In this document: piece after piece, positions 3,545 to 31,350 of the stretch | Layout: every line of letters starts with the position of its first letter | Numbering within the stretch: the stretch's first letter is position 1 | NCBI RefSeq assembly: GCF_905475395.1 | Contig: NC_058339.1 | Coordinates: 42,355,172 to 42,419,171 of the forward strand | Source of the DNA: Chrysoperla carnea | Lineage: Eukaryota > Arthropoda > Insecta > Neuroptera > Chrysopidae | Reading direction: 5' to 3' | Length of the DNA stretch: 64,000 nucleotides | Notes under the pieces: generated by a model | Seen by the model: the letters and a program-made list of their open reading frames with translations, nothing else | Told to the model about the DNA's origin: nothing | The model's database searches: none | Made by a program: the position numbers and the translations under genes

Positions 3545-4706
3545 CTATTCAACAGCACCGAATCTAAACTGACCCCAAGCCATAGATCCTACTTGATTTG
3601 AATACAATCGTTTCGCTGAATCATCACCAGCAGCCCCAGCTGCAATATGAATTGGGAATAAATGATCAAAAGTGGGATGCGCTTTACGTGCATCTCGTCG
3701 TTCACAAATATCAATTAAAGCTTGTTTCCTACTTTCACCAGTATACAAGGTTACAGCATCTTTCAAGGCTTCATCAAATGATATAGCATAATCTGTTGGT
3801 TTATCACTTCTCAGTCTAAATAAATCACGTAAATTATGTACAGACATTCCAGAACCAATAATCACAATTCCTTCTTCACGTAATGGTGCTAACGCTTGAC
3901 CCAACGCATAATGTTTTTCAGGATTTTCATTATCATATAACGAGACTTGAACTATTGGACAACGTAATGGATTTGTATTTGGATCAAAAGCAACCTTAAA
4001 TGGTACCCAAACACCATGATCAATTGAACGTTTCGTTGGTTTAGCTTTGATTCCATTTTTCTCAAATAAATCTAATACTTTGTTAGCAATTTCTGCGGAT
4101 CCACTATGTTCAAAGGTTTCTTCATACATATATTTTGGAAATCCATAAAAATCGTAAATAAGATCAGAATCCGTACTTGTATTCACTTCTACCTCATCTT
4201 TGGACGCTTGCCAATGTGCTGAAAATATAACTATTCCCTTTGGTTTCACTTTTTCAGTAATTTCTTTACCAATATATTGCACTTTTCTGTAGGCTCCACT
4301 ATCCCCACCTAAAATTACAATTAGCGTTTTATTTTTCACTAGTTTTATCGTTGAAACTCAACAAAAATATTAAATTATATTAACATAATTAGATTCTGTG
4401 ACGTAATTTAAATCCTTGATCTATTATATTTATTAAAATACTAGCGTTCATAAAATATGAACATTTTTAAATATTATCCAAAAAGATTAATAATTAATTT
4501 TAACATAGTAGGTAGTTACCTTCTTCATCTTCATACATAAAAGTAGGTCCTCCATGAGAGAAAAAATAAACAGGTGTTTTCTTTACAGGTGACATTGCTT
4601 TATAACTATTGAAAACCATACAATAAAATAAACTTAATAAAACTCCCATAAATACAGCAAAATTATATTTATTTATCAATAAACTTTCAGACAATAAACA
4701 TCGCAT
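3545..4706 (-). CDS. LigB / 4,5-DOPA extradiol dioxygenase-like protein, membrane-anchored or secreted (copy 1)
   Basis: Two exons, 4706-4520 and 4308-3545, give 316 residues. The donor is GAAG|GTAACT and the acceptor ATTTTAG|GT. The phase-1 split codon makes Gly63, at the same place as in the two plus-strand paralogues. The family opens catechol rings with a non-haem metal. Its conserved histidines are all present: SHGGP (His51), SAHW (His94), DHGVWVPF, GSGMSVHNL and HPTFDHLFP near the C-terminus. Residues 16-32 form a hydrophobic stretch that reads as a signal anchor or uncleaved signal peptide. The ATG at 4706 was chosen as the first in-frame Met; Met20 or Met38 are alternatives, and Met38 would remove the hydrophobic segment. 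The gene points away from copies 2 and 3 and is clearly more diverged from them than they are from each other. The substrate is not known; DOPA is only the family label. Confidence 0.88.
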
Positions 4707-7700
4707 TACATCATTTCTCAATATAAATTATTTTATTATAAGCACTATAAGCTAACCATGTTAATTTTATCAAAATCTGTATGTTGTGCTTGTGATGATG
4801 TCATGAACATGATAATTGAAAAAATTTTCAACACAAATATACTTTACCACAACTTTACAACAAAAAAAGTAATATTGATAATTACTATGAAATAAATATG
4901 ACGTGACCTTCTGAATGTTTTTTCCCCATTTCATGCATATACTTAGAAATTTACTATGTCATGTGTTACGTAGTGTTTTTAGTTTTTTGTTAACTATTAT
5001 TGCAACCAGTTTTGTTAACAAAAATTAGTAATTAATCTAATATCAATAGGGATGATAATTTTCAAAAATTTATAACAATGTATGGGTCATTACTAATTTT
5101 AATGTTGAAAATATTATTTGATATTGTAGGTAGATTAGTTTTTAATAAATAGATATAAAATTAAATTATTTTAAAGTCACGGCAAGGTTATGTGCATTCA
5201 ACGTTGTAAATGTTGAGTGTTGACGATTCATGTATTTTATTAACATCGTTACATCGAATGTGATTTTGAATTTATTTCGGCAACTCTCATATCATTAATG
5301 TAACTTTCTAAGATGCAAGCTATCTTTCGTCTATATCAAAACTGGTCTATGCAATTAATCTGTGAAAAATAATAAAAATGCACACTTTTCCATTTAATTT
5401 GCATAAATAGTAGTATGGCCACAAGCTTGGCGAGTAGATGTTTCTAGGCCTTTTTTACGGACCACTAATCATCCCACCCCTTCAACACCTCCAATCTTCT
5501 ACCATGATTAATTTGAACAATGTGATTCAGCTAAAGTGAAACTGCAGGTTTAAATAACGGATTCATGAGAATCCATGAAGAATAAATGAGTCAGATATAT
5601 CTCGCGACCTAAAAGCTATCATTTGTTTAGCAGGCCTGTAGCCTTTCCATTTCTTGTCCATAGACTTTTCCGTCCAATCAATTAGGGTGGAGGTGGTTTA
5701 TTTCCTTGCAAAACTCAGATGTTTGTTACTCTCGATTGTGCAACGTTCCGGTACGAACATATTTTACCTATTTTGTTCTTGCTAAATTCTTAAATGATTC
5801 TGCGAGCTCAAAAACTCAAGGAAAACTTATTTCGATGAAACAAATAGGTTTTATGAGCGAAAGTATGTTCAGTGCAAAATTGGCTATAGATTTCCTTCTT
5901 GCCGCACTTCCTTTAGCTCCCGGCTGACCTCTTTCTAGCTTTAAATCGTAGTATTCTTCATTTCCGTCGCTTTCTGCAGGAGAAAAAATATTTTAGATTG
6001 CTTCTGAAGTTTTCGTTGCCCGCTTCCTTTTATCACTTTCAAGGATGATAGTCGAGAAGTCCAGTAAAATTTTTAAAGGCATTTATGATTGTAATCATCA
6101 TAGTTTCTGTAATGCCTACGGTCCAATGCAAACGATTAGCACTTGCCATCCACCATACTACTGCTTCAATTTGAATTTATGGCCTGATGGCCTAAGTGTG
6201 CGGACAACATAAGACCAGAAGTGTAATACCCCAACTTCTTAGCATCGCTTAGGCGTCATATAGCTCCATAAGACCATATAGAAAATTGTTACAAATATGG
6301 TCGGGTATAAGAGCAATATTTCAGTTTCACCGACCTATATGTAGATATAAGTTTTAGCTCTTTAACTATAAATTCTACTTTACATATATTTGATTTTTCA
6401 AAAAATATTACGTTGATAATATGAGGTACAAATTCCACATCATTTCGTAGAAAAAAAACTCATAGAAATTACATTTAATAATAAAACAATAGAAATTTGA
6501 TTATCTCTTTGCAATAGATTTTGTTTATAATTATCTTAAACAGTTAAACACTACAAACTTCTAGATTTTTAAATTCGAAAAAATCAGTTTATTTTTATTG
6601 TGACAATAGTTACTTTGTTGTTACTATAAGTATAGTATAAGATTATTGCTTTATAATCATTATTTAATAATATATTTAATAAATATATATTATGAATGTA
6701 TAAATTTATTATTACTATATTAAAATAGGATTACTATATTATTAAATATGTTAATAATTTCCTGATTTATATTTTGATTTTGGACGAAAATCATTGGCGG
6801 CTCTAGGGGGATGTGAGTGGTGCTTCGCAGCCACCGCCATACTGAGTGTAATCATAAGTAAGCATCCAAAGCTAAACGAATAATAGTCCAATTTTTTAAG
6901 TATTTACGACTTATGGTTTTTTAATTTTCCTTATATGTAGAATAATTATTCTGCCAGTATAAGTAAATTGTGCAACAAATAAATTTTCGCACTCAATTGG
7001 CAATTAGCTATTTGTCACTGAACGGAAAATCGTGCAGAGAGAATTAATTCCCAAATTAATTCCGAATAATTATTTGTGCTATATATTTATTTTAATATTT
7101 AATATTAGGTAAATAATATTGCCTAAAATAATCTCAATAAAGTGTTAGACGCGTTTCTTTATAGCTATAAAGATGACGACTTCCGACCTCGAAAAAATTA
7201 TTGTTATCTTCCATGATATTTTATAGAAATTAAGAGAAATAATATAATAATTGTATATTATTGCGGGTGTATTGTTAAAATATTTTAACAATATATAAGT
7301 ATATACTGATTAAAACAAATGAAAACAAACAATTATTTACTGAGTTATCGTTGAAATACCATGTATAGACAGTTTTGATGATGCAATCGTTTGTTTTTTG
7401 ACGTCACGTTAGTAAAGAAAAATATCCACTCTTAGATAGCCACACATTCATAACTGATATTCTCATATAATACATAATATAAAATTTGAACCTAATTTGC
7501 ACCCTCGTGGGTAAACAGTGATGTTTACAAAAAATGTTTCAAACAAAAGTTGTATATTTTTATAAGAAACATTTAAACTTTTGTTCTATCTCTAACGGTT
7601 TGCAAGATGGATCCTATGGATCCAAGACCCAATTGACCCATGTTGCTCATTTACGAACTCGACCTCATCTGTCATCTATTCTCGTCCATTTTCAAATTTT

Positions 7701-8088
7701 AACAACAGGGCAAAGGCCTATTAAATAATCGTAAAAATAATATACCTATGAAGCTTACAATTTTACCAATAATTTAATACATTATAAGACGGAATTTCAC
7801 CATACAATCTCACACAACCCTAAAAATTCGTTACAACCGTCTATGACAGAAATATGTTTTAGAGATTTTATTGAAAACATATATGTTATTAAAAAAATTA
7901 TTATTTAATAAGTATATGAAATTATCATAGACAAAATAATTTTTTTAATTTGTTTATAATCGAGACAAATTTATTCATTCGTTAAACGTGATAAACGTAG
8001 GATAGTAAATCTTATCAGGTGATCTTAAAATTGGCAATAAACTGGTTCTGATATATTTAAAAACGAAGCATAAAATAGAAATACAATA
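4707..8088. other. Intergenic region between divergent LigB copies 1 and 2
   Basis: 3.4 kb. It holds the family A copy at 7319 and unassigned, slightly more GC-rich sequence at 5400-6200 that may be a decayed transposon. Promoters of the two divergent genes should lie here; a TATA-like GATATATTTAAA sits at 8050-8061, about 30 bases before the ATG of copy 2. Confidence 0.45.
7319..7675 (+). repeat. Repeat family A, copy 1 (3'-truncated)
   Basis: Begins GAAAACAAACAATT, then the imperfect hairpin, AAATACCATGTATAGACAG, a TGACGTCACG block, CCTCGTGGGTAAACAGTGAT and CTTTTGTTCTATCTCTAACG. It stops before the GACG microsatellite. It lies upstream of LigB copy 2. Confidence 0.75.
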
Positions 8089-9511
8089 ATGATAGCAAAC
8101 ATATTTATTGTTTTAGTTCTTATTTGTTATAGTAAAACGGAAGAAAGTTCAAAAACACCAGTTTTTTTTATTTCTCATGGAGGCCCAAATTTTATGTACA
8201 TGAAAGGTAGGAAAGAAGTCATTCGCTAATTCAAATTATTGTTCATATTGTTCGCTTCCCTTAGCCTGGCTTTTCCACCTTTTGTTTATAATTAATTTCA
8301 GTTTTATTTTTTTGGTACGGAACCCTAATTTTTTGATTATAAAATACAGCCCTTGTGAAAGGTACATAATCATGCTACCTGCATGATAATGTATCTTTCT
8401 ATTGGAGAAAGAATTTTTAATAATGATGAAATAATTTGAAAATCGGTCTAGTAGTTTTTAAGTGTATCCATTACAAACAAAAAATGGCCAACGTCCTGCT
8501 CACTGTGTAAAACGAAGCGCTTTCCGCCTCTGCCGGAGAGAAAAATAGTATACACACCACGGGAGCAAGTAAAGAATAGTTTCAGATCTCATGTTTGTCA
8601 TCCTCGACCAGTTTCTTTAATACAAATCAGAGGTTCTCAAACTATAGATAAACAATAAAAACACCTTATTAATTGTTTTATCTAAGAATTAAGAGTAAAT
8701 AAATATTTATGAGAAAATCTAATTAATAAAGTTCACACTTTTTTTTTTAGATTTTGGTGGATATAAAGCCGTTGAAAAAATTGGAAATGAAATAAAGAAT
8801 TTCCCTAATTTAAAAGGAATTATTGTAATATCAGCACATTGGCAAAGTAATCTCGATGAAATTTACGTTAATACTGCCGAACATACCGAACTGCTTTATG
8901 ATTTTCCATCTCCAGAAATTTGGCCAGCTTATATGTTTGAAGAACAGTATGCAAATGTCGGATCCAAAGAAATATCATCAAAAATTATGCAATCATTAAA
9001 AGATGCAAATATAAAAACTGTACCAAAATCACGAGGTTTAGATCATGGCGCTTGGGTACCATTTAAAATTGCTTTTCCGTCCGATAAAGTTTCTTTAAGT
9101 GTGCCAATTGTACAAATATCATTATACACAAACGAAGATCCAAACTTACATTTTAATGTAGGACGAGCTTTATCGCCATTGCGTAATGAAGGGATAGTAA
9201 TAATTGGTTCAGGAATGTCTGTTCATAATGTAAATGAACATGATTTGGCAGATAATGAAATTGCAAAATATGTAGTTCCATTTGACAATGCTATTGTGGA
9301 TGCTATGACAAAAAACAAAGGAGAAGCAAGACGAATTGCTTTAAATGAATTAGTGGAACGTTCAGATATTCGTAATGCACATCCAACATTTGAACACTTC
9401 TTCCCACTTTTCGTTGCGGCTGGAGCTACTTATGACGATACATGTGAATTGCTATTCACAAGTTACGTCGCCAGTTTTGCATGGGGTCAATTTCGTTGTT
9501 CAGTTGACTAA
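8089..9511 (+). CDS. LigB / 4,5-DOPA extradiol dioxygenase-like protein, secreted (copy 2)
   Basis: Exons 8089-8206 and 8751-9511 give 292 residues. The donor is GAAAG|GTAGG and the acceptor a T-run followed by TTTAG|AT. The frame stays open across the junction (MYMK then DFGGYKAVEKIG). Residues 1-15 (MIANIFIVLVLICYS) look like a classic cleavable signal peptide. Active-site histidines of the LigB fold are seen at His30 (SHGGP), His69 (SAHW), His138 (DHGAWVPF), His198 (SGMSVHN) and His250/His255 (HPTFEHFFP). The length is close to the 260-300 usual for the family. It is a tandem duplicate of the next gene downstream, with most residues identical. The 544-bp intron carries a transposon remnant. 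The likely place of action is the secretory pathway or outside the cell, inferred from the signal peptide. Confidence 0.9.
8300..8495 (+). repeat. Transposon remnant in the intron of LigB copy 2
   Basis: Holds TTTTTTGGTACGGAACCCTA (shared with family C) and AAATCGGTCTAGTAGTTTTT followed by ATCCATTACAAACAAAAAA. It explains why this intron (544 bp) is longer than that of copy 3 (353 bp). It does not touch the splice sites. Confidence 0.5.
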
Positions 9512-10736
9512 GAATATTATTAGTGAATAATTTTGAAATTATAGGAATTAAAATATAAATTTCAAATTAACCAGAAGATTTAATACCTAAGAGTAAATTA
9601 ATTATATCGCTTCACTAATACAGCTATTCAAGTCCTTAGCACCCCAGGAATGTGATATTTAGGCAAAAAAATAAATCAATCAAATCTCACTTTATATGTT
9701 GATTGTTTAAAATTAAATAAACTTTTAAATTCAATAAATATTTTTTTTTTTTATTAATTTAGATAAATTAATCAAATTAATAATACAATCAAGAATAATA
9801 GATTGATTAATAATTATTTAGGTAAGGAAATCAAGTTTTGTCTATGGATAGTTAAAAAATTATTAAATTATTTTATTCAATAATAAACCGTAAGCAGCTC
9901 CGCCCTTTTAGATCCGGAACTGACCGTATGTTCAAAGTATTCCATTTTCTCGTTCCAACCTAAGAAGGAATTTAGGAGTATGGACTAAAATTTCCATAGT
10001 TTTCACGTGCCAAACATACCAAAAATCTTTTCCCACTTTACGGGACAGATTTTGTCGGTTCTGCCATAGTCAAATGGTTCTTTGTGTGACATCAAGTTGA
10101 CAATTTCATTAATTTTTCATTAATGAAAATATATTGTAGCAAACCTGGTGTTGGAAAATGAAGGGCATAAGGGTTGTAAGAAACAAATAATGTGAAATAA
10201 ATATTTTATTTTATTCCATGGAAATAAGCTATTTTTCTGCATTTTAGAAGTGTTATACCTGCAATTGAAAGTATGAAAGTGGGGATCTTTAGGAAGTCTA
10301 GCTATTTGGATTCTTTTTTTTATTAACAAATATTAAGTTTTTTTCAAAAAAACATTATTTTGGTTCAAAATCCACTCTATTTCGTATGAAAAATGATAAA
10401 AATTACTTTTATTTAATTTAATTAAAACAATGGGAATATTATTATTATCTTATTTTCCATATTTTACAAATTATCTACGTAGCAACCTTCTCGATATAAA
10501 CAACATTCTTAATAAAAATATACAGTTTAATGTGATAACACGTAGTTATTATCATACTATGCTGTAGTTTTGTTTTTTTAATTTTTTCTGGTAGGTATCA
10601 AAAAAATACTTTGGGAATTTTGTTGAAAACAAGTATGTAAATTAAATACACAGTAGAACACTTTTCCTCAAATATTTAAAATTTTTTTATTAGTATAATA
10701 AAAATCGTGATTAAAACAAACAAGGAGTTTGCAATA
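9512..10736. other. Intergenic region between LigB copies 2 and 3
   Basis: 3' untranslated sequence of copy 2 with AATAAA-type signals (9668-9674 and about 9716-9740), then AT-rich DNA. A TATA-like AGTATAATAAAA lies about 45 bases before the ATG of copy 3. Confidence 0.45.
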
Positions 10737-11971
10737 ATGATATCAAAAATATTTATTGTTTTGGTTCTAATTTGTTATAGTAAAATGGAAGAAAGTTCAA
10801 AATCACCAGTTTATTTTATTTCTCATGGTGGTCCAGACTTTATGTACATGAAAGGTTTGACACTATCATTTATTACTTTAATTTAAATTATTCCGCTAAT
10901 CCAAGCGTACGTGAAAATGTTTAGATATTGATAAAATAAATCAATACCCGCACGCTCGTTTAAAGTTTTTTTTATACATACTTTGATATTTACTTAATAA
11001 CATTGTACTGAGCGTGTAAACTTTTTGAATTAATTTAAGCATGCAGGGTAAATCAGTTTTTCTCGGATACGTGAAAATTGGATGAAGTAAAAATTGTAAA
11101 CATTTTGAAGTGCAATGAAATCGCACCTTTAAAGTTTAAAAGTAGTTGCTTTTTGATCAAAATATTTGATTATTTTTTATGATCAATTTGTTACCGTTTT
11201 TTCCCAGAGTTTGGTGGATATGAAGCAGTTCAAAAAATTGGAAAAGAAATCAAAAACTTACCTTATTTAAAAGGAATTATTATAGTGTCAGCTCATTGGG
11301 AAAGTACTCCTGATGAAATTTACGTAAACACTGCAGAACATACCGAATTGATTCATGATTTTGATCGTGATCGTTGGCCATCTTATATGTTTGAAGAACA
11401 ATATGCGAATGTTGGATCCAAAGAAATATCATCAAAAATTTTGCAACTATTAAAAGATGCAAATATAAAAGCTGTATCGAAATCACGTGGTTTAGATCAT
11501 GGCGCTTGGGTGCCATTTAAAATTGCATTTCCGTCCGATAAAATTCCATTGAGTGTACCAATTGTGCAAATATCATTATACACAAACGAAGATCCAAACT
11601 TACATTTTAATGTAGGACGAGCTTTATCGCCATTGCGTAATGAAGGGATTGTAATAATTGGTTCAGGAATGTCTGTCCATAATTTAAACGAACGTGATTT
11701 GTACGCTGATAATGAAGTTGCAAAATACGTGGTACCTTTCGATAATGCGGTTGTGGATGCTATGACAAAAAACAAGGGAGAAGCAAGGCGGATTGCTTTA
11801 AATGAATTATTGAAACGTTCTGATATTCGCAATGCTCATCCAACGTTTGAACACTTTTTCCCGCTATTCGTTGTTAGTGGAGCTGCTTACGAAGATACAG
11901 GTGATTTGCTATTTACAAGCTATGAAGGCAGTTTTGCATGGGGTCAATATCGACTAGGTTCAATTGGATAA
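10737..11971 (+). CDS. LigB / 4,5-DOPA extradiol dioxygenase-like protein, secreted (copy 3)
   Basis: Exons 10737-10854 and 11208-11971 give 293 residues. The donor is GAAAG|GTTTG and the acceptor TTCCCAG|AG; the split codon gives Glu40. The N-terminus MISKIFIVLVLICYS is a signal peptide nearly identical to copy 2. His30, His69, His137, His197, His250 and His255 match the metal-binding and catalytic pattern of the family. Differences from copy 2 are clustered: FDRDRWPSYM replaces FPSPEIWPAYM near residue 91, NERDLYADNE replaces NEHDLADNE near residue 200, and the last eight residues differ. The first cluster lies on the stretch after SAHW that helps form the pocket in this family, so substrate preference could differ (inference). 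The 3' flank is also homologous to that of copy 2. Confidence 0.9.
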
Positions 11972-13917: not shown

Positions 13918-14557
13918 TTAGAATGTATGTGCATTTCTACATACTCCACAACCCAGGGCATACTCTTCACCGGTGGGTGGATGTTTAACATGTAATGGAC
14001 ACTCTTCACCTTCTAGTTTTTTCATTTTTGGACCTGCTGGACATGGTGGTAATTCTAATTTGGACGCTCCAGTAATTTTTTGGAAATCTTCATGACAAGC
14101 ATTACAAAAATGTGTAGAACCAAAACAAAAGAATACAGCTACAGAACAGCAATAACGACATTTATATTCTAAGAAATCGGTTCCATGACGTGGACACATT
14201 TGTGCGCGGGCAATATCCGAACATCCACCACATACTAATTCCGTAGGATCATATTCAGTACCCATTTCAGCATCACATCTAGCTTCACCTCCATAATATG
14301 CCTATAAAATTAAATTTTATAATTTAATAATTGACTTAAGATAGGAAATTTTCGTTTAAACTTACCTTTTTACATTTATAACAGACATAATAAGCATATC
14401 TGTCCATTGCATAAGCTGCAGGGTCATTATGTGAAGGCATTTCACCACTTCGACCACCCTCGTATTCTAACCTCATTAAAGCTTTCCGTCGTACATCATT
14501 ATAAAGTTCTTGAACACTTTTTAGTTCATCTGCTAAAGCCTCGTGTTCAATTGTCGC
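13918..14557 (-). other. hiw: highwire tandem-cysteine (TCD) catalytic tail
   Basis: Exons 14557-14366 and 14301-13918. In human MYCBP2 the RING passes ubiquitin to Cys4520 and then Cys4572, which esterifies threonine or serine (RING-Cys relay). Counting from the equivalent of Cys4572 (in AVFFCFGSTHFCNACHEDF), this protein keeps the following Phe, the Phe and His equivalent to Phe4578 and His4583, the later Phe, the Glu 38 residues upstream (equivalent to Glu4534, in DPTEL), and a Cys in EARCDAE that matches Cys4520 with a two-residue shorter loop. The protein ends CGVCRNAHTF and stop. It should be catalytically competent (inference from conserved residues). Confidence 0.9.
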
Positions 14558-17500
14558 CTAAACAAAAGTCATACGTTTATATCAAATATCAGAAATAATA
14601 ATGAGGCCACGAAACAGTCGAAAAATAATTTTTATCTATTGCTAAAAAGACTGCATTTTACTTGTTAGAAATGAGTTTCTGCCAAATTTTCTGAAACTAT
14701 GAATTCTGATAGTTCTTGATGAATGGCTCAAAATCCCTACGAAAAAGCTTCATCCTTCCGTTTTTATTTAGAATTTTAGTCATAAAAATGGCAGACCAAA
14801 AGTTTTCAAATGGCTTTACTTCTCAGGCAAATATTATGCCAGGTATGGGTTCCGAACACATGTATTATTTTATATTTTTGAGCTTTATTTTGTACACGTT
14901 TCTAATGCAATAATGGTTATTAAAGTCATATATTCCCGTAAGAATTGCATCCTACGAATGAAAGTTGAAGATTATCACCAGAATAATAGCTTCCTAATTT
15001 TCATTAATATTGATTAAGTGGCTTACATACTCACTTTCGAATTTATAATATATAGTACAAATAAGTTTAAATTGTATATACAACAAGAAATAACAAATTT
15101 CGATCTATTTGATTTTTGAATCGTAATTAATAAGCACATTTGTTGCTTAAATGCTAAGAATTTAGCCATAACCGATAATTTTCCAGGTACTTACTTTACA
15201 AATTGGACATTGAGAAAATGCAAAAGTAATTCTTGGTCCAGCCCATCGTTTTAACAAAGCTGCACGACAACAGTGTAAATGGAATACATGTCCGCATTTT
15301 AATTGGATAGCTGGCGCACATGATAATGCTTCTGTAAAACAGATCATACACATATCGTCTGCATCCTGTCGTAAATCAGATCCTGGAGTGCATCCTTGTA
15401 AACAAGGTAAACAATTCAATTCATTTTTAACTCCACCACATAAATGTCCACATGAATGAACTTTATTACAAGCGGTTTTTGCATATTCCTAATCAAAACC
15501 ATAAAAATTGTTAAGTATTAAGGTAACATTCGAAAAAAATGTAACTACTCTGTCTAACTGTTATTACCTGACATTCATGATCGGCACATACATTACCGAT
15601 TGCCAATAATCCACTATTACTAGTAGCCCCACAAAAACGACAAACACCAGTACCACTTCCTGCAATATTGATACGAGTACCACCCGAACGAAATTCAACT
15701 AAAGCTTTTAAAGTATTTGCGTCTGCCAATGCTAATAGCCAAAATAGTTTTGTTCGACCACAACCTTCGTGTAATTCAACTTTAATAGCCTCTTCTTCTT
15801 CTTTGCAAACCTGGAATCATTTATATTCAGTTAATTTTTGCAGAGTATATAAATACAGTGTGCACCAATTGCAAAGTACTTCAGCGCGCGTCAACCAACA
15901 AATAAGATGTGCTCATTGACCGAATGGTTGTGTTATAATAACGAATTTCATATTGGTTGATTTTGACACGTTTTGTTTCTTTAAACCGATTCTTTCGCCC
16001 ATTTCAAAAATGAAAATAATAAAGTGCCCACAATTTTACAGACGCAAACAGAATTCAATTAGAAATTTGATGCATTTCAATCGAATTTTACCAACTGTTT
16101 AAAATTTTGCAATTTTTTATCTAAGTAAAATACTTTTAATTTACCTGTCTTTGATGCATTCTTGTTCTGCGATGTAAATGTAAAAATCGATCACAATCGG
16201 CACAAAGGTTACCACAAACATTACACTGAATAATGGCATAAGTTACGCCATCATCATGGTTACTACAAGTCGGCTGCAAATTAAATTTTTTATTAATTTG
16301 TAAATATATTCATTCAATAGGTAGCAATTAAGCAAAACATACTCTTGGCGGTGCTGGTTGACCATCATTTTGATGACCCCATTGTGCGGATGATAATCTT
16401 TTTCCATGTTCTGGATCTAATGCACATAGCGATGCAAGTGCTAGCCAAATAGTTGGTGTTTGCAAACATTCACTAGGAATCCTTTGTGATTCTGATAAAC
16501 GAGTTAATGATAAAATATTTTCAGCTATAGCACCTTTTGTGACACTAGCCCATGCTTCCGATAATTTTCCCTGAAATTAAAATGTTTATTATTAAAATGA
16601 AAATTATTCAAGAATGTTCAAAAACTTACCGATGCCATATCTTTAATAAGTTGTACAATAATTTCAGCAAGTTTACGATTTGTTGTACTTCGTAAGTACC
16701 ATCTAGGATCGGAGCTAAATGTTGATCGAATACAGGTTCCTAATGTGACGGTACTCAAACCTTTGTTATTGCTACCATTGGCTGCTTCATTCCCTTTAAT
16801 TTTTACTTGAACTGTTAAAGATTTTGCAATACATGCCAGGAAGACATCCAAAATACCAGCCCTATTTCAACATCAAAATTATTGTCAAATTATTGCAACT
16901 TTTAGTATTCAAGAACAGAACCGATTTATACCAGAATTTGGGTTATGTTACTATTGAAAAAAAATAAATTTTTAAAATATTAGTCAGTTTTTAACTGTGA
17001 ATGGTGTCCTTATCGTATTTCAAGGATGCGATATTTTTTTGCTTTAATTTACTATTGTCCTACTTTTCATTGTAAAAAGGCTGATATATTTAAATAACCT
17101 TATCGATTTTGTTCTGAAGAAGAAAGAAATAAAAATTTTTATTGATTGATTCTAATGAATTCATTTAGTATACCTGTGCACATCAAACGGTTCCGAACTA
17201 TCAGCATTTTTATTGGTTGTTGTAATGATATTAAAATCAGTCGGTGGTAAATGATCAATTTCCATGACATTAGCAAATGTTGATGGCGATATTTCAGGAA
17301 GAATTCGACGGATTAATGATGTAACTTGACGCTGTACTCGAGCACTACCAGTATGAAGTAAACTTAATAAATCCCTAATAAGACCATATTGATGGGATAA
17401 ATATGCTCGACCCACTGAGCTACCAGATAATGCTAAAACCATTGAAAGCATTTCAAAACAATATGTATCTGAAGCTTTTGGAGAATCTATTGATGATGTA

Positions 17501-20500
17501 TTTGTGCCTCCAGTAACAGTTTTATCAGCTGATGGTGTTTCAACTTGTCTATTATTTGTGGGGCTTACTGTTTGTGGTATATCTGATGTGGGTGATGTTA
17601 ATCCTTCTAAAGCAGTTTCCCATTCATCACGAATACGATATGATTCTTTACGAATTGCTTGTACAATGTGAACAATAACTTGTTTCTGTAAATGTGTGAG
17701 TTTACTACGACTGAACAGAATTCCAACCATATGTTCACGAAGTTCAGTACTCTCTTCTGGTGGTTCTCCTGTATCACTAGTACTTAACGAAGTTCCACTA
17801 TCAGCTAATCGATTTGCACCAATCTCTGGACTACCTTCACCCAAAATAAGTTTACCAAACACTTGTGATGTAATGAGACGAAACACTCGTAATGTTTCTG
17901 CTTCACAAGCACGTTGTTGAAGTATAGCAGGATGAATAGGAACATTTGCATGGCCAGATCGATGTGCTCTTGATCTGTTTAATGTATTTATTGGAGCTCG
18001 TCCTAAAACACGAATTTGACGAACGCGTAATGTATTATCCGGACCTTTAAGTTCTAATCTTATGGCACTGTGAGTTTCATCTGAAATTTTTAAGGTTTTT
18101 ATTATTTATCTGATTAACAACAAATTTTTGTATTATTGACTTACCGTGAATGTAACAGTTTATCCAACATCCAACCAATCGAGTTTCTAATTCAATTGCT
18201 TTCAGTTTAATTAAATCATCCGTATTTGTTCCAGAATAAAAAACAATGTTGGTGATTTTATTCTGCAATAATTATAAAATAAAGAAAATAATATTAAGAA
18301 TTATAAAGCTAGACTGGCATTTGATTATAATAAAACTCGCTAACAATTGATAGTCACTCGAGTGATCTCATAAAAACGGTAATCTCATAAAAACATATTT
18401 ACAGAAAATAACGAGAGTATATTACTGGTGGTCTAGTTTACTGAAAGTCTGTAGATTAGCTAGATTAATAGACCTTTTCATTTTAATTACGATTCATTAT
18501 TGTTTCAGACAGATAATAATAAGTTGGACAAAGATACAATATATTTGTTATTCATTTTATCACATTAAGTAGTTTTTAACAAACTGTCCAAAACAAAAGA
18601 TAATCACTTTTTAAAATGGAAAAGTCTATGGTGCTCAATTAATTGCTGGCTTAAAATAAAGTTAAATAATGTTGTAAAAATGAGTGACAAAAAAGTTTAT
18701 TAATATCGAAAATCAATATCTAGAGATAAACATACATACTTAAAGTAATTCTGCAACCTTATTTTTAATAAAACACATAGCAATGATAAATAAACAACTA
18801 TATCTATATTGGCTGGTGAATATAATAATCAATTGTGGATTTATCAGTTACAAAAAATAGTTCGTGAAGCGCAAATTAAAAGTTAAGCGTAAAATAATTG
18901 TATGTGCTCTGCAAATATCTATTTGTTTTTTATATAAATAAATATAAATTTATTTTGACAGTACTGTCTAAATCAATCCTGAGGAAAAAAGCTAAACTAT
19001 GTTTAGGAACGTTGCCTAAATTATCACGTGGCGTGACATAATTTAACGCTCAAACTTACTGTCAAGCGTCAGCATGTAAATATACCTTAAGAAATTACTT
19101 AAAAATTTGAAAATAATTTTAAGACATAATTATGAACTTACGGCTGGATCTCTACAATTATCAATGTAAACAAATATTATATGTGGTTGATGATGTGGTG
19201 CACATGAAATATTCAACCATTTTGTTTTGTTACGATCTTCATCACCTGATTCCCAAAAAGTTTCTGTTGAACTATCTGTTAGACAATTTGTCATTGCAGG
19301 TCGACTAGATGATTTTACCTCAAGATACGGTGTTAAATCTTGTAGACATTCCACAACACTAGTAATTGGCTAAAACAAAACAAAATATCTTTTTATAAAT
19401 GGCAAATAGATAATTATAGCTAGGAAACTTGTTAAATAAAAAATGTATGTTCGATTGAACGTCACATTACTGACATTGAATTTTGCGTTTTCGATTGAAG
19501 GCAAAGAGCACTGCCAGTGTACTCCGCATTACTCTGACTTGCTAAAATCAGAACATTAGTTCTGTGAAATATTGCGTCATGATTGATAAAAGAAAACTTG
19601 GTTGTTAAAATGAAAATATCCTAATAGTTTTTTTTTATAACATACCTGATTTGCAACAGAATGATGACTTTCACAAATTGAAATAATACTATCCTCCATT
19701 TCTTCAGATCGCGATAATATTTTACTAATATTACTAAATACATGAGATCTATGTAGAAATGAATGATCGGAATGTGTAAAACGTAAACCCCAACATCGGA
19801 CAGCCGCTTGTTGTAACGGAGATCCTAATGGTAATGCCAGCATAATATCAGATATTGTTTGTAATAAACCATGAAATGCAGATGGTAATGGCCAAGCTGC
19901 TTCACCAGCAATTACAATATCTGATAAAGGATGCTCACAAACATTTAAAATTTCATTATCATCTGTTTTACGATGATCTTTGCTATCTTTATTATCATCT
20001 TCATTTTCATTTTCAATATCGATTGGTGTTAAAGCTGTTACAAACCACCACAACAAATCATGAAGACATATCGGTTGCGTTACAGATCGAAGTAGCCAAT
20101 TAAATGCCTAAAAATAAAAATATTAAATTTCGGATTCATTAATAGAATTCATGTAGTTTACAAACCTGCATTGCATAAACTCGACAAGCAGCTTTACGGA
20201 TAGCTTGTTTTAAAGCGAATTGTAAGCCTTGTAAATCATGGCGTTGTAGAACAAAATTTAAAACTGGTCGTCGTAAAAGCATTAATGGTTCATTATGTTC
20301 TATGTCCGCATCTGTTGTGTTAATTTGTCCGGTTGAAACAATTGCCGTGTTATCAATCATTGGTACAAGTCTCTGTAATGTTGTGGATGGATGACATAGC
20401 AAAGATGATCCACCTTCTGGAAATTTAAGAAAATATTAATTGTTGAATTATTTAAATCTAAACGGGTTTTGATTATAAAATTCAAGTGAGTTCCGATTGA

Positions 20501-23500
20501 AATGAAATAATCGATCAAGTGCTACACTCTCCAATCACTGCTCTGGATAATATCTTCGGGCATAGTATCGGGCTACAAAATTTGGATAGTACACAATTTA
20601 ATCTACGCTCCAATATCATAAGAAAAAAGAAAACATATTTGTTTTATTATTGGCAACTTGTATTACATAATTATTGTTGTTTAATATAAGTAAGATAACT
20701 GTCATACAAAAAATATGTTTTTATAATGTAAAAACAATTAGGATGATGACTAAATTTTTTTTTCACTTCTCGTGAAGAATTCTCTTTGTACGGGCAGAAA
20801 GGAGAGGTTGGGTTTTGAAAATCTTTAGAAGTAATTAAACAAAAAGGAACTGAGAAAGATACTTTAAAAGTGATGTCATTGTTGAGTATCGTCATAGAGA
20901 TTACATATTCAAAACTCTGTTTTGCAAGAAAAAGTTTAGCAAAAATCTGTTAATGCTTATAACTTCTTCGTTTTTTAATCAATTTTAATTTTTGTTTTCA
21001 ACTTTTTTATGGAATCAAGTCTACTTTTACAATAAAAAAAAACATTTAAAACAGGAATCCATTTTTAAAATACTGATGATCAATGATACATACTTATACA
21101 AAGATCAAAAATTTGTTTTTAAACCAATCCCCAAATTAACCAGTCCTTTTAGAGAAAGAATTTAACATCTTTTCTAATTCAATCCTGCTGATACCCATTC
21201 AAAACTTTGAATCGAAATAAATGATTTTCTATCGATTCTCATCGTTCAAATTCTATTAAATTCGTTCCTACCAAAACCATTTCAAAACTATGAATAGAAT
21301 TGAATGGAAACGATGAATAGAATGGTTATAATATTATTAACTTAAAACGTTAAATCGTATAGTGATTTAACAGGATTTAAACAGAAATTTTCGATTAACT
21401 TCAATCGGATTTTTTAACCAGGAGAGTAAGAAAATTTATGTTTACCATTTGATAATTCAATGCTGCTGTTATTACGTTTTCGCATCATAATAATCCGTCC
21501 ATCTTGGCCACTTTTGCTCCACGGTGCCCCATTTGTCCCCATCGATACAGATCGATGAAAACGTAAATTTCTGCCATAATCTGATTCATTATCTGATAAG
21601 GATATTTCCGATAAAGGCTGTAATCAAATTTAAAATTTAATTGTTAAGAATCAGATATTTATTCTAATTTTTTTTACCCGTTGCCCAGTTAATGATGGCC
21701 CTGGTGAACAATAATTTCGTTCGGGTACGCTGTTAAGTCGTAATTGTGTATCATAAAAAATATGCTCGTCGTAAGGCGGAGTTAATCCTAGTGCAGTTAA
21801 ACATTGAAATGGTGGTAACGGGCTAAATGGACCACCATTCTCCGGAGGTGAATAATTTTCAGCTACAGATGGCATGTTAGTAATTGAAGAACGTCGTGGA
21901 TTTGGTGATATACCTGGGGATTTATTCAAAAATTTAAAAATGTATCATTAAACTCCAAAATATTTTACATACCAGTTCCTGCAGCACTGCCTAATTCTAA
22001 TAAAAACATAGCATTATTCATCATTATGCGGTGAGCTTCAATTACAGGACTTTCTTCAGGTGTGTTAATAGCAGGTGACGTATTTAATATAGCTGGCGAA
22101 CTAGGCATGGATGTACTTGTTGTTTCAATCGCTTTCTTTTTCACATTATTACTTTTCGTTTTCGTTGACCCAGTTTTGTCTGATTTATTTAACACTTTAC
22201 GTGATTTCATATATCGACTTCGACAAGTATCACAAATTAAATACCAAGTACTACCACCTAAAAAAATTGTAAATTATCGGATTTATTTTTATGATTATGG
22301 TTAAATTATCTCTTACCAATTCCACCATCACCACAAGCTCCAGCCCAACCGACGCAAAAATTACCACCAGAATTATATCCTTTACCACCAGCATGAGCCC
22401 CACAACCAGGATGTTGTTGTCGCATATGATAAGTTACTGGGTGTGTAAAGCTTCCTCCACACAATTCACATGCAGTTTGTCTTTCGGAACCGCTTTCTAA
22501 GACCGCACTTCCATCTTCAAAAACCAGTGTTTCATCTGAAGCGTTTAATATGATTTATAATAAATATCACAATAAAGAATGACTTTAAAGATTTCTTGTT
22601 ACGAGTTGTATTTAATTGCAACTCGATCACAAAGAACGTAGAGAGCACATGGCAAAGGGTAATATAATTTCTGCCTTCTACGACTTACAATTAGTGGCTA
22701 TAAAATTTATCGACACATTTAACTTACCTCTATAGTACGGTCGTAGAAATTCAATTTTCTTTTTATTCATTTTCTTTGTTTCACGTTCAACAATTGTAAA
22801 ATGTTTATCTTTTGCATTATTTCTTGATATATTTGCCGCTTTTTCTTCTTTTTGGTTCATTTTACTAAATGGACATGCTAATAATTCTTCCAACATTGCT
22901 GATTGCATTGTATTCGAAACTAATTCTTCCCATAAATATACCAATGCTTTTAATGCCGGTGGTAAGACAGCTACCGTATGAAACGCAGTATCTGATATCA
23001 TTTCTTCTTTAATAACTGAATCTTGCGCTTTTTTAGCGCGATTACGATTTGCGTTTGCATTAGCTGCAGAACGTGTTAACGTTTCTAAAGTGGACGGTTG
23101 AATATGAAGGTAATTACCAGCATTAGTCACTTCAACAGAATGCCGTTGTGGTACTTGTTGATTTTGATTAGATGTCGATGTTGCATGCCGTGTAACAACC
23201 AAAGCACCTTTTTTTGGTAAGCTCGGATGGAATTTTAAGAATGATGCACATGCCATCGCATCGTGAACGATTCCTTCATGCCAAATGAATGCTGCAAATA
23301 TAGCACGATGACTTTCCGCAACTGAAGGACTAATTGCTATTTTTACAGGCTCCTTTTGTGTAAATGTTAAATTTTTGTTTGTTGGTTGAGCTGGCAATAA
23401 TGGTTGCATACGTGCTGGTGAAATTGCACGTTTTGCACTACGTGTTTTTCGACATGATTTTGGTGATAATTTATTTGTTGAATCTTTATATGATGTGCCA

Positions 23501-26500
23501 ATTGAAAAATGGCTACGAATTGCTGTGGTACCACTAGTACTATTTTCTGGTGATGTTTGTGTACCAGTTTGTGTCATTTTTCTAGGACTACATTCAGAAG
23601 TTTCCTAATTAAAGTGAATAGTTTGTAAATTTTATAATTTTTCAATTAACTTAAAATTAAATTCGCGTACCTCTCTTTGTTTGTTAGGTGTATTTGGCGT
23701 ACTATCAGGCGGACTGTGCAAAGAGCTTGATCCACTTGGTGTTGGTGATGGATCTCGAGTATTTGCAGTAGCTTGACTAGGAGATTGTGATAAATCACGC
23801 GTTAGACTACTCACCAAAGCGCTGGTATCGGATTGAGTTGAACTACGTCTATGTGATGTTACTCCACTATCCACTCCTCCACCAGTACCAGATACTAAAG
23901 TTATTAAATAACATAAATTAAAAATTTTTACAAATTATTATGAGTAAGTGAAAATACCTAATGGTGAAATCCCAATACTTCTGGAAGAGCCGCATGCTTG
24001 AGGACTACTACTTGTACTATCATGAACAAATCTTCCTCCTAAAAATAATCACTGATTACATTCAAAATATAAAAAGACAATTTGTTTGAAAAATAATAAA
24101 AAAAATTTCAAATATTAAATAAAGCAATATTAGCGTAAAGTATAAAAATTGTGCAATGTGTTTAATGAGTCTCTTTCTGACAAGCGCCCGTTAGGTTTAA
24201 GACAATCATTATGACAATTAGTGGAAGTCATTATGAATTTTCAAAAACACCGAGCTAAAATTTGCTACTTGAACTAAATATATTTAAAAATCAAGTATCA
24301 TTATTGTAAAAAAAAAAAAAAAAAACAAACCAATACAAATACTGCATTGGTATTCTGTCAATTGATTGTTCTTTAGTTATTATGTCTTTTAACTTTGCGA
24401 CCGCTTGCGCTTGGTTATTTCTGTTCCGTTTTGCAGTTTTTTATTGTAAGGTATTTAATTCTTGTATCATAACTTGACGCCCAACGTGGGGGCCGTCCGA
24501 CTCATATGGGACGTATTTTACAAGGGAGTTGTCTGTTTTCAAACAACCTGTATAAAATACTTCCAAGTATTTCAATGATTTTTATTTATTTCTATGATGA
24601 TTTGTCACAATTTTTTTCGAGTTTCGTTATGTTAGGAATATTTAAACATTTATGTAAATAATATTAATAAAAATAATAAACAAAGTCTCTTAAAAAAGAC
24701 TTAATTAGTTATTAAATGAGAAATACTTTCAATTGGATTCTCTAATTACAATAATCTATGTCTATGATTAATTATTTCTAAGTTCTAAATAGAAAATAAT
24801 CGTGTAACGTGTATGTAGGTACTTAATAAATTGTGTAAATATGTATTTTTTGGAAGAGTGTGATGATAATGATTATCGTGTTTTTGTAATTATATATTTT
24901 GGTGGTAACGTCAGTGGCAGTTGTTAGATTGTAATACCTGAAATACTTTGAGATACTGGACCAATCATCATTGGAACAGGCACTCCTGGAACACCACTGC
25001 GGCTCACGGAACCACTCACTGATCAGCACAACACAACAAACATAATAAACTACATGCAAAACATACTGTTGTGCTAAATAAAATTTTCATACTAACTAAG
25101 AACTAAATTACTTACTACTTATTAAACTTTATATGAAATTATATTTAAATTTTAACTTAAATATAATAAATTATTTTCTAGCATTTTTTACTCGGAACAA
25201 TGGACCTAAATTAAGAATTTATTCACACACGATAAGTTTTGAATTTTTATTCGAAATGTGCTTGGTGTGTAGAGGCTCTAAAATGATTTATTCCAAATTA
25301 TTAGAAAATGTTTTGGAAGAAATAGAAAATGTAACAGATAATTTTTTTTAATATAAAAACTAAACAGATGGTGATGGCCTGTAAAATTGTGTAATTACAT
25401 AAATTACCAACCGCAACCAAGTTAATACGTAGATGTATTGATTAAAAGGGATCTTTTCAATATATGTGTTTGGACTAAACATGGCGGCTGCTAATAGAAG
25501 TGCCAACAACATTTAAAATATCATAAAAAAAATGAACTTTAAAAAAATAATATAATCTATCAAAAATAAATTTTTTCCCCATTTTTTGTATTTTTAAAAT
25601 TTTTGCAAATGTTTAAATAAAATGGGATTGTAATAAGAAATATTTCTTCCAGTAAGAATAAGTACATACTTCAGTGTTACTCGAAGATCATGACTGATTT
25701 CCATTTGAAGCAGAGAATTAAATTTGGTGAATTTTAATCTTATTTCGTTTTAATTAATTATTCTATGATTTGAAAAATTGTTAATCGTATGAATCTATAT
25801 TAATCCAAAACATATTCCATATCTGTTTAGATAACTATTTTTATTATTCTAGTTTTTTTGATATCAGTCATCGCGAAGCTATTTCAGTGTGTATAATAAT
25901 AATTCGCAAAAAGAAACTAAACGAAGCTCAATATTATGATACCCCTTGATTCAAGAGAGTAGATTATACCTGGAATTGGAACTGGACTTGAACTACGACT
26001 ACTAATTCTTGGGGAAATACCTCCACGTGGACTAGCGCAACGACGCGGTGTATCCGGTGGTGTAACACCATTTCCATTAGCCCTTGATTCACCAATTGCC
26101 TTTACTAATTCTTTAACAGATACACCAGATAACTCGGCTGGAATTTCCCTACAAAGAATAAAAGTAACAGTAAATTTATTTGTTTAGGATTAGTTTAATT
26201 AAACAAAATAACTAACTTTGAATCGGGAATATAAGTTGGTTTATTTTCTTCCGCTTTTAGAAATTTTTGTATGACTTTTGGTTTATCAATCCTCGGAACT
26301 TTTGGTGAATCAGAACGATTGAAATCATTTGTATGTTCAATTGTTGTAGATGCTTCGCCAAATACAAATGGATTTGTTGACTTGGTATCGGCTGAACCAG
26401 ACGATGTGCGATCGTTGCGTGAATTAAAGGCATACGAATCGGGTGGAGCAATAAGCATTTTACTTGTTGATGCAATTGAAAAATTGAATCCACGTTTATT

Positions 26501-29500
26501 GGGCGATGATGTTGTATCTCCAGTACCAGGTGTACTTTTGGTTGTTTCAGTTCCTAAGTAAAATTTTATGAGTAAATTTCAACCGTATTATAAAAGATAT
26601 TACACATAAGACTTTATGAAATTTTATTAAAACAGCTGCTAAGGTAAAAGTACATTATTACGGGATAACACAGAAATGAGGAGCGTCACACTAGGGTGGA
26701 GGGTTCGCAAATATGGCCAGCTTTGACAATGATAGGAGAGGGTTGAAGAATTGTAAAATTTGGATTACGTAATTTATGGATGGCACTTATTGAGTTATGA
26801 AATTTTCTTAACTATGCAAAAAATCGTAATGTCTTATATGGGATCACCTTTATACAAAACAATGTAATAATTATCACACACCTACACGTTGCAAATCAGT
26901 TGTTGTACTATCAAAATCACCTTTTAAGTAGACAACATCGTTACGATTCAATGCTAATGTCCATGCTTCATCATCCGTGTTAAAACAATACTTATCAATT
27001 GTTTGTGCATCCAACAATAACCATACACCTTCAGGATTGACAACGCATTGTTTTACATTTACACGATTACCCAATACCAACATTCCAATAGGTGTAGCTG
27101 ATAAACTAGGTCGTGAACGTACATTATGGCCGGATGCGCCGCATTTAATTACAGTATATGGTCCAGGTGGCAAAGAATTTTGTTTTGATTTACTAGAAAA
27201 GACAAAATCATCCAAATATTAATATAAAAATAAAATAATATCATGCATATATATATATAATTTATTTTTAAGGTAAATAAATAAAAATATTCTTCTCTCC
27301 GGCGGGGAATCGAACCCCGGTCTCCCGCGTGACAGGCGGGGATACTGACCACTATACTACCGAAGACTTGTGTAAAGTTAGAAATATTTTGGACTATACG
27401 TCCTCGCGTTTTAAAATTCACTTTTTAATTATATCTTTTTCAATATTTTATAAGAATAACTACAAAATTAAGAGGTCTATCTGATAAGGTTGTGTATTTT
27501 TATATAATAAAATTAAGGTATTGGTATGTCCTTCTTGGTTTATGTCTTTCTCAAAATATTAAGTATCATATTTTAAACAAGGGAAATTTTTATTTATTTC
27601 TTTTCAAAGAAAACTAATAGAAAATTGATGTATGTTATAATGTCTAATATTTCTCGTGCATTTGAATGTAATGAAAAAATAAAATAAAAGATTTAGGTCT
27701 GATCTTTTTGATCAGGCTGTTACAATGTACCACTCCCGGATGCGATCCCACTACTGCTCGACACAAGAACTTTTGACTGCTGGGTTTCCCCCCTGGTCCG
27801 ATTCGCTCTTCCTTAGACAACCTGCACACTTTGAATTCCTTCAAAGTGTCCATATTGATGCCAAGCTTAGTGCGGACATTAAGTCAACATGATCACAACT
27901 GTAACAGAACTCCTGATCTCATACCATCCACTAAATCCGACCTCCAAGTAGCTGGATTACAGGAGTTCGCCAAACTCCCAGTCGACATACTAACAAAATA
28001 TTCTTAACATAATGTATTAAAAATATTTCTTTGAAGAAACACATCTTACAAACTAACTTCTTCTAAAATAAAAAATAATTACTTTCATGATGCTTTGTTT
28101 TTATAAAGATTTGTATAAAGTAGTTCTTGAATCTTAAATTTAATTATGTATTTTGTTTAAAAAAATCGGGAAATTTTAAATCAAATAATGCACACATTCT
28201 CTTATCTTTAAATTGTTTTTCATTCAAGTGCACGGAAAATATCAGACATGAAAACATAAAAAGGGCAAGAAAGACATATACTCAATCTCTACTTTCATTA
28301 TGTAAAATCTACATTTACTTTATCAGATAAGTAATAAGATGATAGCAGAACTGTAGAACAATTTTAGCCTTATTAAAACAGATGTATTTTAGTAATTTTT
28401 ATAAAATATTTGACATAATATCATTAAAAAGTTAATTTTAAAACGCGAGGGCGTACAGTCCAAAATACTTGAAACGTCAAACAAGTCTTCGGTAGAATAG
28501 TGGTCAGTATCTCCGCCTGTCAAGCGGGAGACCGGGGTTCGATTCCCCGCCGGAGAGGATTTTTTTAATCAAATTTATTCCTGCTAAAAATAAATTTCAT
28601 GTAAAATATTGTACAGATCCGTATTGTAACGCTCCGTGTCCCAAATGAACCTTGTTTTTTGAATTCCTTGAATCTTAAATTTACATAACTTAAACAAAAG
28701 TTGCAGAATTTAATGGGGAGATCATATTCTGACATTAGATTGGACCTAATTCTCAGGGATGCTCTATTTGTCTATTAAATCCTAAATGGTAAGAGATAGA
28801 ATAACACTTTAAAATAGAAAGTTTATCCTCATAAAAACCTTACATTTTTCGAAAATCGTCAGCTTTCGGAGGAAATACGACTTAAAATATGTCATGATTG
28901 CATTTAATCGAAAGAATATACGCTTAAAGTTTATCGATAATTGTATAGCAAAGTCATAGACACAATCAAATGTCCTCTTTTGCCTTCGAAAACTTTTGGC
29001 TAAAGCATTTTTCCGCAATTAGCGTGTTTTATTTCGATTAATATATAAAATGGTTCACCCTGTATCTATATAAATAATTGCAATCTCAATGTTTATTTTT
29101 TGTGCTACCTTGTACGAGTAAAATAAAATAAAAATTGAGAAAAAGATTTTTAACTTTACCTTTCTTTCGCCACGTCAGGCATTCGTTTTTGTATGGTTTC
29201 TTTTATAAGTTGCTCCAAAATTGATTTTGGCTCTTCAATTGGTAATAATAATGTTTTTCCTAAATGTTGATTATATTGTAGACACCATGCTTCCATAACA
29301 GGATTTACACAATATTGTTTGATTGTCTCAGCACTAAGTCTCAACCAGACACCATCATCGTTATGGATCTCTTCAATAAATGCAATTGTTCCATTTACAT
29401 GAACAATACCAATTTGTTCACTTTGTAATGATGGATGTGCTCGTATCCGTAAACCAGCACTATTTTTTGCAACAAATTTACGTAGTTTATTTGGTTGTTG

Positions 29501-31278: not shown

Positions 31279-31350
31279 TCTTCGGTAGTATAGTGGTCAG
31301 TATCCCCGCCTGTCACGCGGGAGACCGGGGTTCGATTCCCCGCCGGAGAG
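31279..31350 (+). tRNA. tRNA-Asp (GTC)
   Basis: 72 bases with all stems intact: TCTTCGG/CCGGAGA, CCCGC/GCGGG, CGGGG/CCCCG; anticodon GTC. It lies 145 bases upstream of the first highwire exon in the window, antisense to it. The sequence after it repeats the flank and exon edge that follow the tRNA at 30746. Confidence 0.94.

What the first reader, a model, noticed from the sequence alone, without database searches (positions are those of the whole stretch)
3545..11971. Cluster of three intron-containing LigB / DOPA-dioxygenase-like genes in an insect genome
The LigB extradiol dioxygenase family is best known from bacteria, plants and fungi. Here three full-length copies sit together, keep all the active-site histidines, and share one phase-1 intron at the same codon after the first His motif. 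They are genuine host genes, not contamination, because they have introns and are linked to highwire. A distant ancestral animal origin or an old horizontal transfer followed by intron gain are both possible.
Basis: partly seen in the sequence, partly recalled or inferred. Interest (0 to 1): 0.72.

Follow-up and report, generated by a model that had tools for sequence, protein, structure and literature searches.

The report
Three insect catechol-splitting dioxygenase genes
This animal, probably an insect, carries three intact copies of an enzyme gene of a kind best known from microbes and plants that cuts open catechol rings; such a gene is already described from moths and butterflies, so this is a useful new example and not a new kind of thing.

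Summary
The window carries three intact two-exon genes of the LigB family (Pfam PF02900, all far above cut-off): A on the minus strand, B and C on the plus strand. All five metal-binding and catalytic histidines of beet DOPA dioxygenase are kept, each gene has one phase-1 GT-AG intron, and codon composition matches a host gene. They lie between an apterous-like homeobox gene and highwire, and are the only LigB genes found in the 559-Mb assembly. B and C share 83.5% of residues (dN/dS 0.21); A is 48-49% identical to both.

Two details need correcting. A's intron lies two residues away from the B/C position. A's start codon is ambiguous.

The kind is not new. A silkworm LigB gene was published as a transfer in 2011, and a 2017 review lists it in 12 lepidopterans with fungi or Naegleria as donor; the 2011 paper calls its genes intronless. 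New here: an intron-bearing three-gene cluster in a genome that does not look lepidopteran, signal-peptide-like starts on B and C, and a changed substrate motif in B and C.

Most likely these are Fe(II) extradiol dioxygenases that cleave small catechols, B and C outside the cytosol. Origin is unresolved: no sampled bacterial relative exceeds 39% identity, and fungal and insect sequences could not be searched.

The parts
3545..4649 (-). LigB gene A (exon 1 4649..4520, intron 4519..4309, exon 2 4308..3545); possible starts 4706, 4649, 4619, 4595
8089..9511 (+). LigB gene B (exon 1 8089..8206, intron 8207..8750, exon 2 8751..9511)
10737..11971 (+). LigB gene C (exon 1 10737..10854, intron 10855..11207, exon 2 11208..11971)
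8089..8133 (+). signal-peptide-like N-terminus of B (residues 1-15; S15|K16 fits the -3,-1 rule)
   Evidence: best 9-residue hydropathy 3.87; no other in-frame ATG before the first His motif (sequence itself). Simple rules only, no SignalP.
10737..10781 (+). signal-peptide-like N-terminus of C (residues 1-15); a second in-frame ATG at residue 17 would give a form without it
13921..14301 (-). 3' part of highwire/MYCBP2, the neighbouring host gene
   Evidence: E 1e-71 to MYCBP2 chains

Best explanation
The three genes encode class III (LigB/DODA-like) non-heme Fe(II) extradiol dioxygenases of the host. Three histidines hold the iron, two more bind and deprotonate a catechol, O2 is inserted next to the diol and the ring opens to a semialdehyde. 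A is the more conserved copy with the H-N-L-R (class I LigB) motif; B and C are a younger tandem pair, under purifying selection, with a changed substrate motif. At least B, probably C, and possibly A, enter the secretory route and so meet extracellular catechols: plant phenolics in food or the gut, or the insect's own cuticular and haemolymph catechols. I favour detoxification of dietary phenolics. The family was probably acquired long ago from a fungus-like donor, as proposed for moths. SHOWN here: family, histidines, gene structure, selection, neighbourhood. INFERRED: catalysis, iron, secretion, substrate, origin. Component estimates: active extradiol dioxygenases 0.85; secretion of B and C 0.75; dietary phenolics as main substrate 0.4; fungal-type donor 0.5.
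For: PF02900 far above cut-off in 3 of 3. Best solved relatives of A are three chains named DOPA dioxygenase, first 8in2 (E 2.7e-43), the beet enzyme, then 29ky and 9j2l, and E. coli YgiD 2pw6. Five of five active-site histidines kept; the four encoded in exon 2 are invariant in 43 of 43 aligned rows. Exon 2 of A folds with mean pLDDT 89, pTM 0.89. B-C dN 0.083, dS 0.39. After the fourth histidine B and C carry Asn where 69 of 90 non-insect rows carry Arg in H-N-[LM]-R; no other matched row has Asn there, 3 of 93 rows gave no match to the pattern. Hydrophobic N-terminus in B and C with a fitting cleavage site. GC3 as in neighbouring ORFs. Parallel: 17 secreted intradiol dioxygenases of fungal origin in a spider mite, some shown to cleave plant catechols (PMC9167512, abstract and passages). 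Donor: silkworm LigB top non-insect hit is the fungus Talaromyces; the review gives fungi or Naegleria.
Against: No expression data. No SignalP; A's start is ambiguous and C has a second start that would drop the leader. Beet residues that shape the DOPA pocket (T17, D254, Y260) are G34, a gap and W288 in A, so the substrate is open. Secretion would be unusual for the family (recalled: bacterial and plant enzymes are cytosolic). Origin: the trees do not settle it, and the donor claim rests on papers about moths, one of which calls the donor a fungus in its table and a plant in its text.
Confidence: 0.5

Rival explanations
1. The genes are DOPA dioxygenases proper: they convert the insect's own L-DOPA to betalamic-acid-type or muscaflavin-type products for pigment or antioxidant protection, as reported for a tardigrade DODA1.
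For: Nearest solved structures are DOPA dioxygenases. A tardigrade DODA1 is reported as a putatively transferred gene for betalain formation (passages of PMC13389832, and PMC13263728). E. coli YgiD, which like A has H-N-L-R (for the Salmonella copy), is said to convert L-DOPA (PMC11926856 passage), so this motif does not exclude DOPA.
Against: The H-P-x-x-x-T-P motif of the three DOPA dioxygenase chains is absent: A has H-N-L-R, which PMC4493658 (passages) gives as the mark of class I, not of the betalain class; B has H-N-V-N, C H-N-L-N. T17, D254 and Y260 are not kept in A.
Confidence: 0.2
2. The family is an old eukaryotic gene passed down vertically in animals and lost in many lines; no transfer happened.
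For: Introns and full host adaptation; insect clade apart from 86 bacterial rows when the three DOPA dioxygenase chains are included, 99/97 and 95; no sampled bacterial relative above 38.8% identity to A.
Against: Papers place the lepidopteran gene with fungi or Naegleria. The insect intron, near codon 40, does not match the first beet intron after nt 246-260, so no shared old intron with plants is seen. The tree separation is lost without the three chains.
Confidence: 0.3
3. The proteins are cytosolic or peroxisomal housekeeping enzymes that clear catechols made inside cells; the hydrophobic starts are annotation error or a membrane anchor.
For: A can start at 4595, giving a short start like its bacterial kin; C can start at its second Met; no glycosylation sites in B or C, 1-3 cysteines each.
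Against: B has no other ATG before the first His motif and a stop 6 codons upstream; the hydrophobic leader is kept in B and C.
Confidence: 0.25
4. Contamination or a recent bacterial insertion.
Against: GT-AG introns in 3 of 3, GC3 as in neighbouring ORFs, copies only 48-84% identical to one another, host genes on either side on a 94-Mb contig; best sampled bacterial identity under 39%.
Confidence: 0.01

Closest known systems
Lepidopteran LigB, silkworm BGIBMGA003842 and its kin in 12 species (PMC3116507 passages, sections 11 and 13; PMC5704228 one table passage)
   Same: LigB-family gene (pfam02900) in an insect nuclear genome, passed an EST filter in silkworm, top non-insect hit a fungus.
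   Different: Silkworm gene is described as intronless and without homologues in its genome; here three copies with one intron each, in a genome of six large contigs of 39-140 Mb, which by recalled knowledge does not look lepidopteran. Direct sequence comparison was not possible.
Beet DOPA 4,5-dioxygenase BvDOD (8in2, PMC11926856)
   Same: Five active-site histidines, length, family; 95 of 253 aligned residues identical to A.
   Different: No H-P-x-x-x-T-P motif, T17/D254/Y260 not kept in A, leader present in B and C, first intron elsewhere.
E. coli YgiD (2pw6, NCBIfam NF007914)
   Same: Best NCBIfam match for A and B; shares the H-N-L-R motif with A.
   Different: 136 and 123 bits against a cut-off of 233: same superfamily, not the same equivalog.
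Tardigrade DODA1 (Li et al. 2024, known here only through passages of PMC13389832 and PMC13263728)
   Same: A putatively transferred DOPA dioxygenase in an animal.
   Different: No sequence was available to compare.
Spider-mite secreted intradiol dioxygenases (PMC9167512 abstract and passages)
   Same: Secreted, multiplied, transferred catechol dioxygenases in a plant-feeding arthropod: a working parallel.
   Different: Intradiol cleavage and another enzyme family (recalled); PF02900 is the only Pfam match here.

Membership tests
LigB / class III extradiol dioxygenase (PF02900) | Pfam profile above the gathering score | tested here: met
   3 of 3 proteins, 109-125 bits against 26.3
LigB / class III extradiol dioxygenase (PF02900) | Three iron ligands and two catalytic histidines as in BvDOD | tested here: met
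   A H32, H75, H259 and H141, H201; invariant in A, B, C
LigB / class III extradiol dioxygenase (PF02900) | Fold matches solved LigB/DODA structures | tested here: inconclusive
   Confident model of A exon 2, but no fold search was accepted
LigB / class III extradiol dioxygenase (PF02900) | Fe(II)-dependent extradiol cleavage | not testable with these tools
   needs purified protein
Betalain-type plant DODA (class II) | H-P-x-x-x-T-P motif after the fourth histidine | tested here: not met
   H-N-L-R in A, H-N-V-N in B, H-N-L-N in C; HPSNGTP, HPLDETP, HPSDDTP in the three chains; class I meaning of H-N-L-R from PMC4493658 passages
Betalain-type plant DODA (class II) | DOPA-pocket residues T17, D254, Y260 | tested here: not met
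   G34, gap, W288 in A; B and C not mapped residue by residue
YgiD equivalog NF007914 | score above curated cut-off 233 bits | tested here: not met
   136 (A) and 123 (B) bits; C not submitted
Lepidopteran transferred LigB | groups with the moth genes in a tree | not testable with these tools
   no insect or fungal sequence collection available
Lepidopteran transferred LigB | intronless and without paralogues, as stated for silkworm | tested here: not met
   three copies, one intron each (statement)

The most novel reading that the evidence does not exclude
A secreted extradiol catechol dioxygenase family, acquired or kept outside Lepidoptera, multiplied into three genes and split in substrate motif, that opens plant or cuticular catechols outside the cells: the extradiol counterpart of the spider-mite intradiol enzymes and an exported form of an otherwise cytosolic family.
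Probability: 0.3. Interest if true: 0.6.

Novelty: new member of a known kind. Interest (0 to 1): 0.35.

Why it matters
If the proteins are secreted and active, an insect would have its own enzyme for opening catechol rings, a step otherwise left mostly to microbes. Catechols are both plant defences and building blocks of insect cuticle and melanin, so it would touch herbivory, immunity and pigmentation. If the host is not a moth, the published lepidopteran transfer would have to be older, repeated, or not a transfer.

Tried and rejected
Bacterial donor: no row above 38.8% identity to A among 90 non-insect rows. The 86 bacterial rows other than the YgiD row lie on one side of a branch when three DOPA dioxygenase chains are in (99/97; 95), but not when these are left out and the YgiD row roots the tree. 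Cautions from the tool: the bootstrap had not settled and the YgiD row L090 is very long; A, B, C and some others differ in letter make-up; the long plant-type and insect branches may join falsely. So 'not inside bacteria' is not shown.

I took 29ky and 9j2l for plant enzymes from their names; one search does not give the organism. An earlier scan of genome contigs with an insect-only alignment found none; two scans of viral contigs found none, with their own narrow patterns. Phage collection: 5 records, of which 3 are labelled ygiD or LigB and 2 have no annotation.

Naming the host: the COX1 search gave one bacterial-type gene on C1, a piece on C2 that reads on in the mitochondrial code, and two weak matches on C6 below the cut-off that I did not examine; no full mitochondrion was found. 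Contig C337, tried as a possible mitochondrion, reads as repeats without tRNAs in its first 10 kb. The C2 piece looks like arthropod COX1 to my eye (recalled). A search for nuclear receptors, to compare with insect receptor structures, did not complete.

Papers: ten searches (one search was rejected for its wording) listed no paper that I recognised as on LigB in insects outside Lepidoptera. Three lists were cut: 20 of 21, 20 of 54, 10 of 2,651. I opened seven papers, all in part only; the library lacks most subscription papers. I saw nothing of the 2013 lepidopteran study that I recall as the other source of the review's table.

Recalled, not tested: that ascomycete LigB proteins resemble copy A closely; that moth chromosomes are many and small; that DODA is usually cytosolic.
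Full report
WHAT IS THERE. Three LigB-family genes lie at 3545-11971. A is on the minus strand (exons 4649..4520 and 4308..3545), B and C on the plus strand (8089..8206 + 8751..9511; 10737..10854 + 11208..11971). Each has one GT-AG intron in phase 1, of 211, 544 and 353 nt, and no internal stop. Pfam gives LigB, PF02900, as the only family in 3 of 3. Chance is excluded: frames of 262-270 aa against a maximum of 153 in 200 resamples, and E-values of 2.2e-31 or better. A search of the whole 559-Mb assembly found three LigB matches from three candidates, all here; that search works exon by exon, and the tool warns that counts of large families are lower bounds.

ARE THEY HOST GENES. Yes. GC3 is 0.178, 0.181 and 0.211, against 0.14-0.19 in five neighbouring ORFs that I took as highwire. 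Of these five only 13921-14301 is confirmed, by MYCBP2 chains; 15165-15488 has a RING match below the curated cut-off, 17164-18105 and 22681-23604 have no Pfam match, 15514-15816 was not searched. Further along the same strand one filamin-repeat match passes its cut-off and two SH3_3 matches fall short. On the other side, about 0.6 kb before the window, ends a homeobox gene: one exon matches Lhx9 at 3.8e-24, a second homeobox exon and a LIM-domain exon were read by eye as apterous-like. All lie on a 94-Mb contig.

HOW THE COPIES RELATE. B and C share 243 of 291 aligned residues, A-B 139 of 289, A-C 142 of 291; dN/dS is about 0.21 for B-C, while A against B or C is near saturation at silent sites (dS 1.1-1.4). 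B and C align over their exons and a few bases around them, with nothing else between the two loci but two matches of 28-41 bases. So the duplication is old enough for introns and flanks to lose likeness while the proteins were held by selection. The intron of B and C is at the same codon; in A it is two residues further from the FMY motif. I read it as one inherited intron. Beet LigB genes have exon 1 of 246-260 bp (PMC4493658 passage), so their first intron lies elsewhere.

ACTIVE SITE. Beet BvDOD, chain 8in2, holds iron with H15, H53, H229 and needs H119 and H175 (PMC11926856 abstract and passages). These map to A H32, H75, H259, H141, H201, invariant in the three copies; the four in exon 2 are invariant in all 43 rows of alignment A3. 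The DOPA-pocket residues T17, D254, Y260 are G34, a gap, W288 in A. After the fourth histidine A has H-N-L-R, the class I LigB mark, B H-N-V-N and C H-N-L-N. Among 93 rows H-N-[LM]-R occurs in 70 (A and 69 of 90 non-insect rows), Asn in the last place only in B and C; 3 rows did not match the pattern. A model of A exon 2, which lacks exon 1 and its histidine, has mean pLDDT 89; no fold search was accepted.

WHERE THE PROTEINS GO. B and C begin with a strong hydrophobic stretch (best 9-mer hydropathy 3.87) followed by a site that fits the -3,-1 rule; A has a weaker one (2.3 from the 4649 start, 2.77 from 4706) and two later starts that would leave it out. B has no alternative start before the first His motif. 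In the first 18 codons B and C differ by 2 silent and 3 replacing changes, too few to show selection on the leader itself. These are simple rules, not a trained predictor. One N-x-S/T site in A and none in B and C neither helps nor excludes secretion.

ORIGIN. Of 90 non-insect rows none exceeds 38.8% identity to A; BvDOD is 35.4% by BLAST. The careful tree of 93 rows (3 insect, 3 DOPA dioxygenase chains, 87 bacterial) puts the insects in one clade (100/100) apart from 86 bacterial rows (99/97), with the YgiD row beside the three chains; a quick tree without YgiD agrees (95) but warns of meeting long branches; without the three chains the insects fall among bacterial rows with weak support. So there is no near bacterial donor in the sample, and the deeper place is unresolved. 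Fungi could not be sampled. The 2011 silkworm paper gives Talaromyces, a fungus, as top non-insect hit for its LigB gene, although its text says plant donor; the 2017 review table says fungi or Naegleria, in 12 lepidopterans. The silkworm paper states that its ten genes are intronless.

WHICH ANIMAL. Six contigs of 140, 101, 94, 77, 76 and 39 Mb hold 527 of 559 Mb; nine others whose length I saw are under 0.7 Mb. Of five contig starts fetched I scanned three for tandem repeats: two are long-period satellites throughout their first 6 kb, one shows none. By recalled knowledge this karyotype is unlike moths. Order and species remain unknown, and 'insect' is likely, not proved.

MECHANISM. Best reading: Fe(II) extradiol dioxygenases that open small catechols; B and C, and perhaps A, work outside the cytosol, most likely on dietary phenolics. 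The nearest working parallel is the set of 17 secreted intradiol dioxygenases of the spider mite, of fungal origin, some of which were shown to degrade plant compounds (PMC9167512 abstract and passages). DOPA cleavage as in a tardigrade is a rival: the betalain-type motif is missing, but YgiD with H-N-L-R is reported to convert L-DOPA, so it is not excluded.

NOVELTY. A new member of a known kind. What adds interest is the cluster, the intron, the leader and a host that may not be a moth.

Noticed in passing
window 27687-27982 (-) and 32788-33081 (+): Two full-length metazoan SRP RNA matches (244.9 and 176.2 bits), 86% alike, in the stretch that also holds the SH3_3 and filamin-like ORFs.
   Followed up: no
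window 27295-27366 (-), 28486-28557, 30746-30817, 31279-31350, 33503-33574 (+), 53810-53881 (-): Six tRNA-Asp(gtc) genes or tRNA-derived copies, most listed pairs at or above 90% alike over about 82-111 bases.
   Followed up: partly
L112 1330-2928 (-), contig C1 of the assembly near 138.89 Mb of 140 Mb: An intact bacterial-type cytochrome oxidase subunit I gene; the five best plasmid hits shown, up to 72% identical, are from genera I recall as alphaproteobacteria. Two more long frames beside it were not searched. Looks rickettsial to me (recalled): a symbiont stretch joined in assembly, or a real insertion.
   Followed up: partly
window 39115-39663 (-); L108 1450-1929: Mariner-type transposase remnant, PF01359; a similar frame lies just beyond the window (by eye).
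   Followed up: no
window 7361-7667, 41060-41591, 44065-44614, 46570-47134, 51287-51558, 56871-57244: A dispersed repeat family, about 79-92% alike between copies, one copy between genes A and B.
   Followed up: no
window 57328-57766 and 57807-58250: A direct pair 97% identical over 444 bases.
   Followed up: no
L107 361-909 and L106 8227-9376 (before the window): LIM and homeobox exons of an apterous-like gene on the plus strand, ending about 0.6 kb before the window.
   Followed up: partly
PMC3116507 table 1 against section 13: The silkworm paper names a fungus as top hit for its LigB gene but calls the donor a plant in the text.
   Followed up: yes
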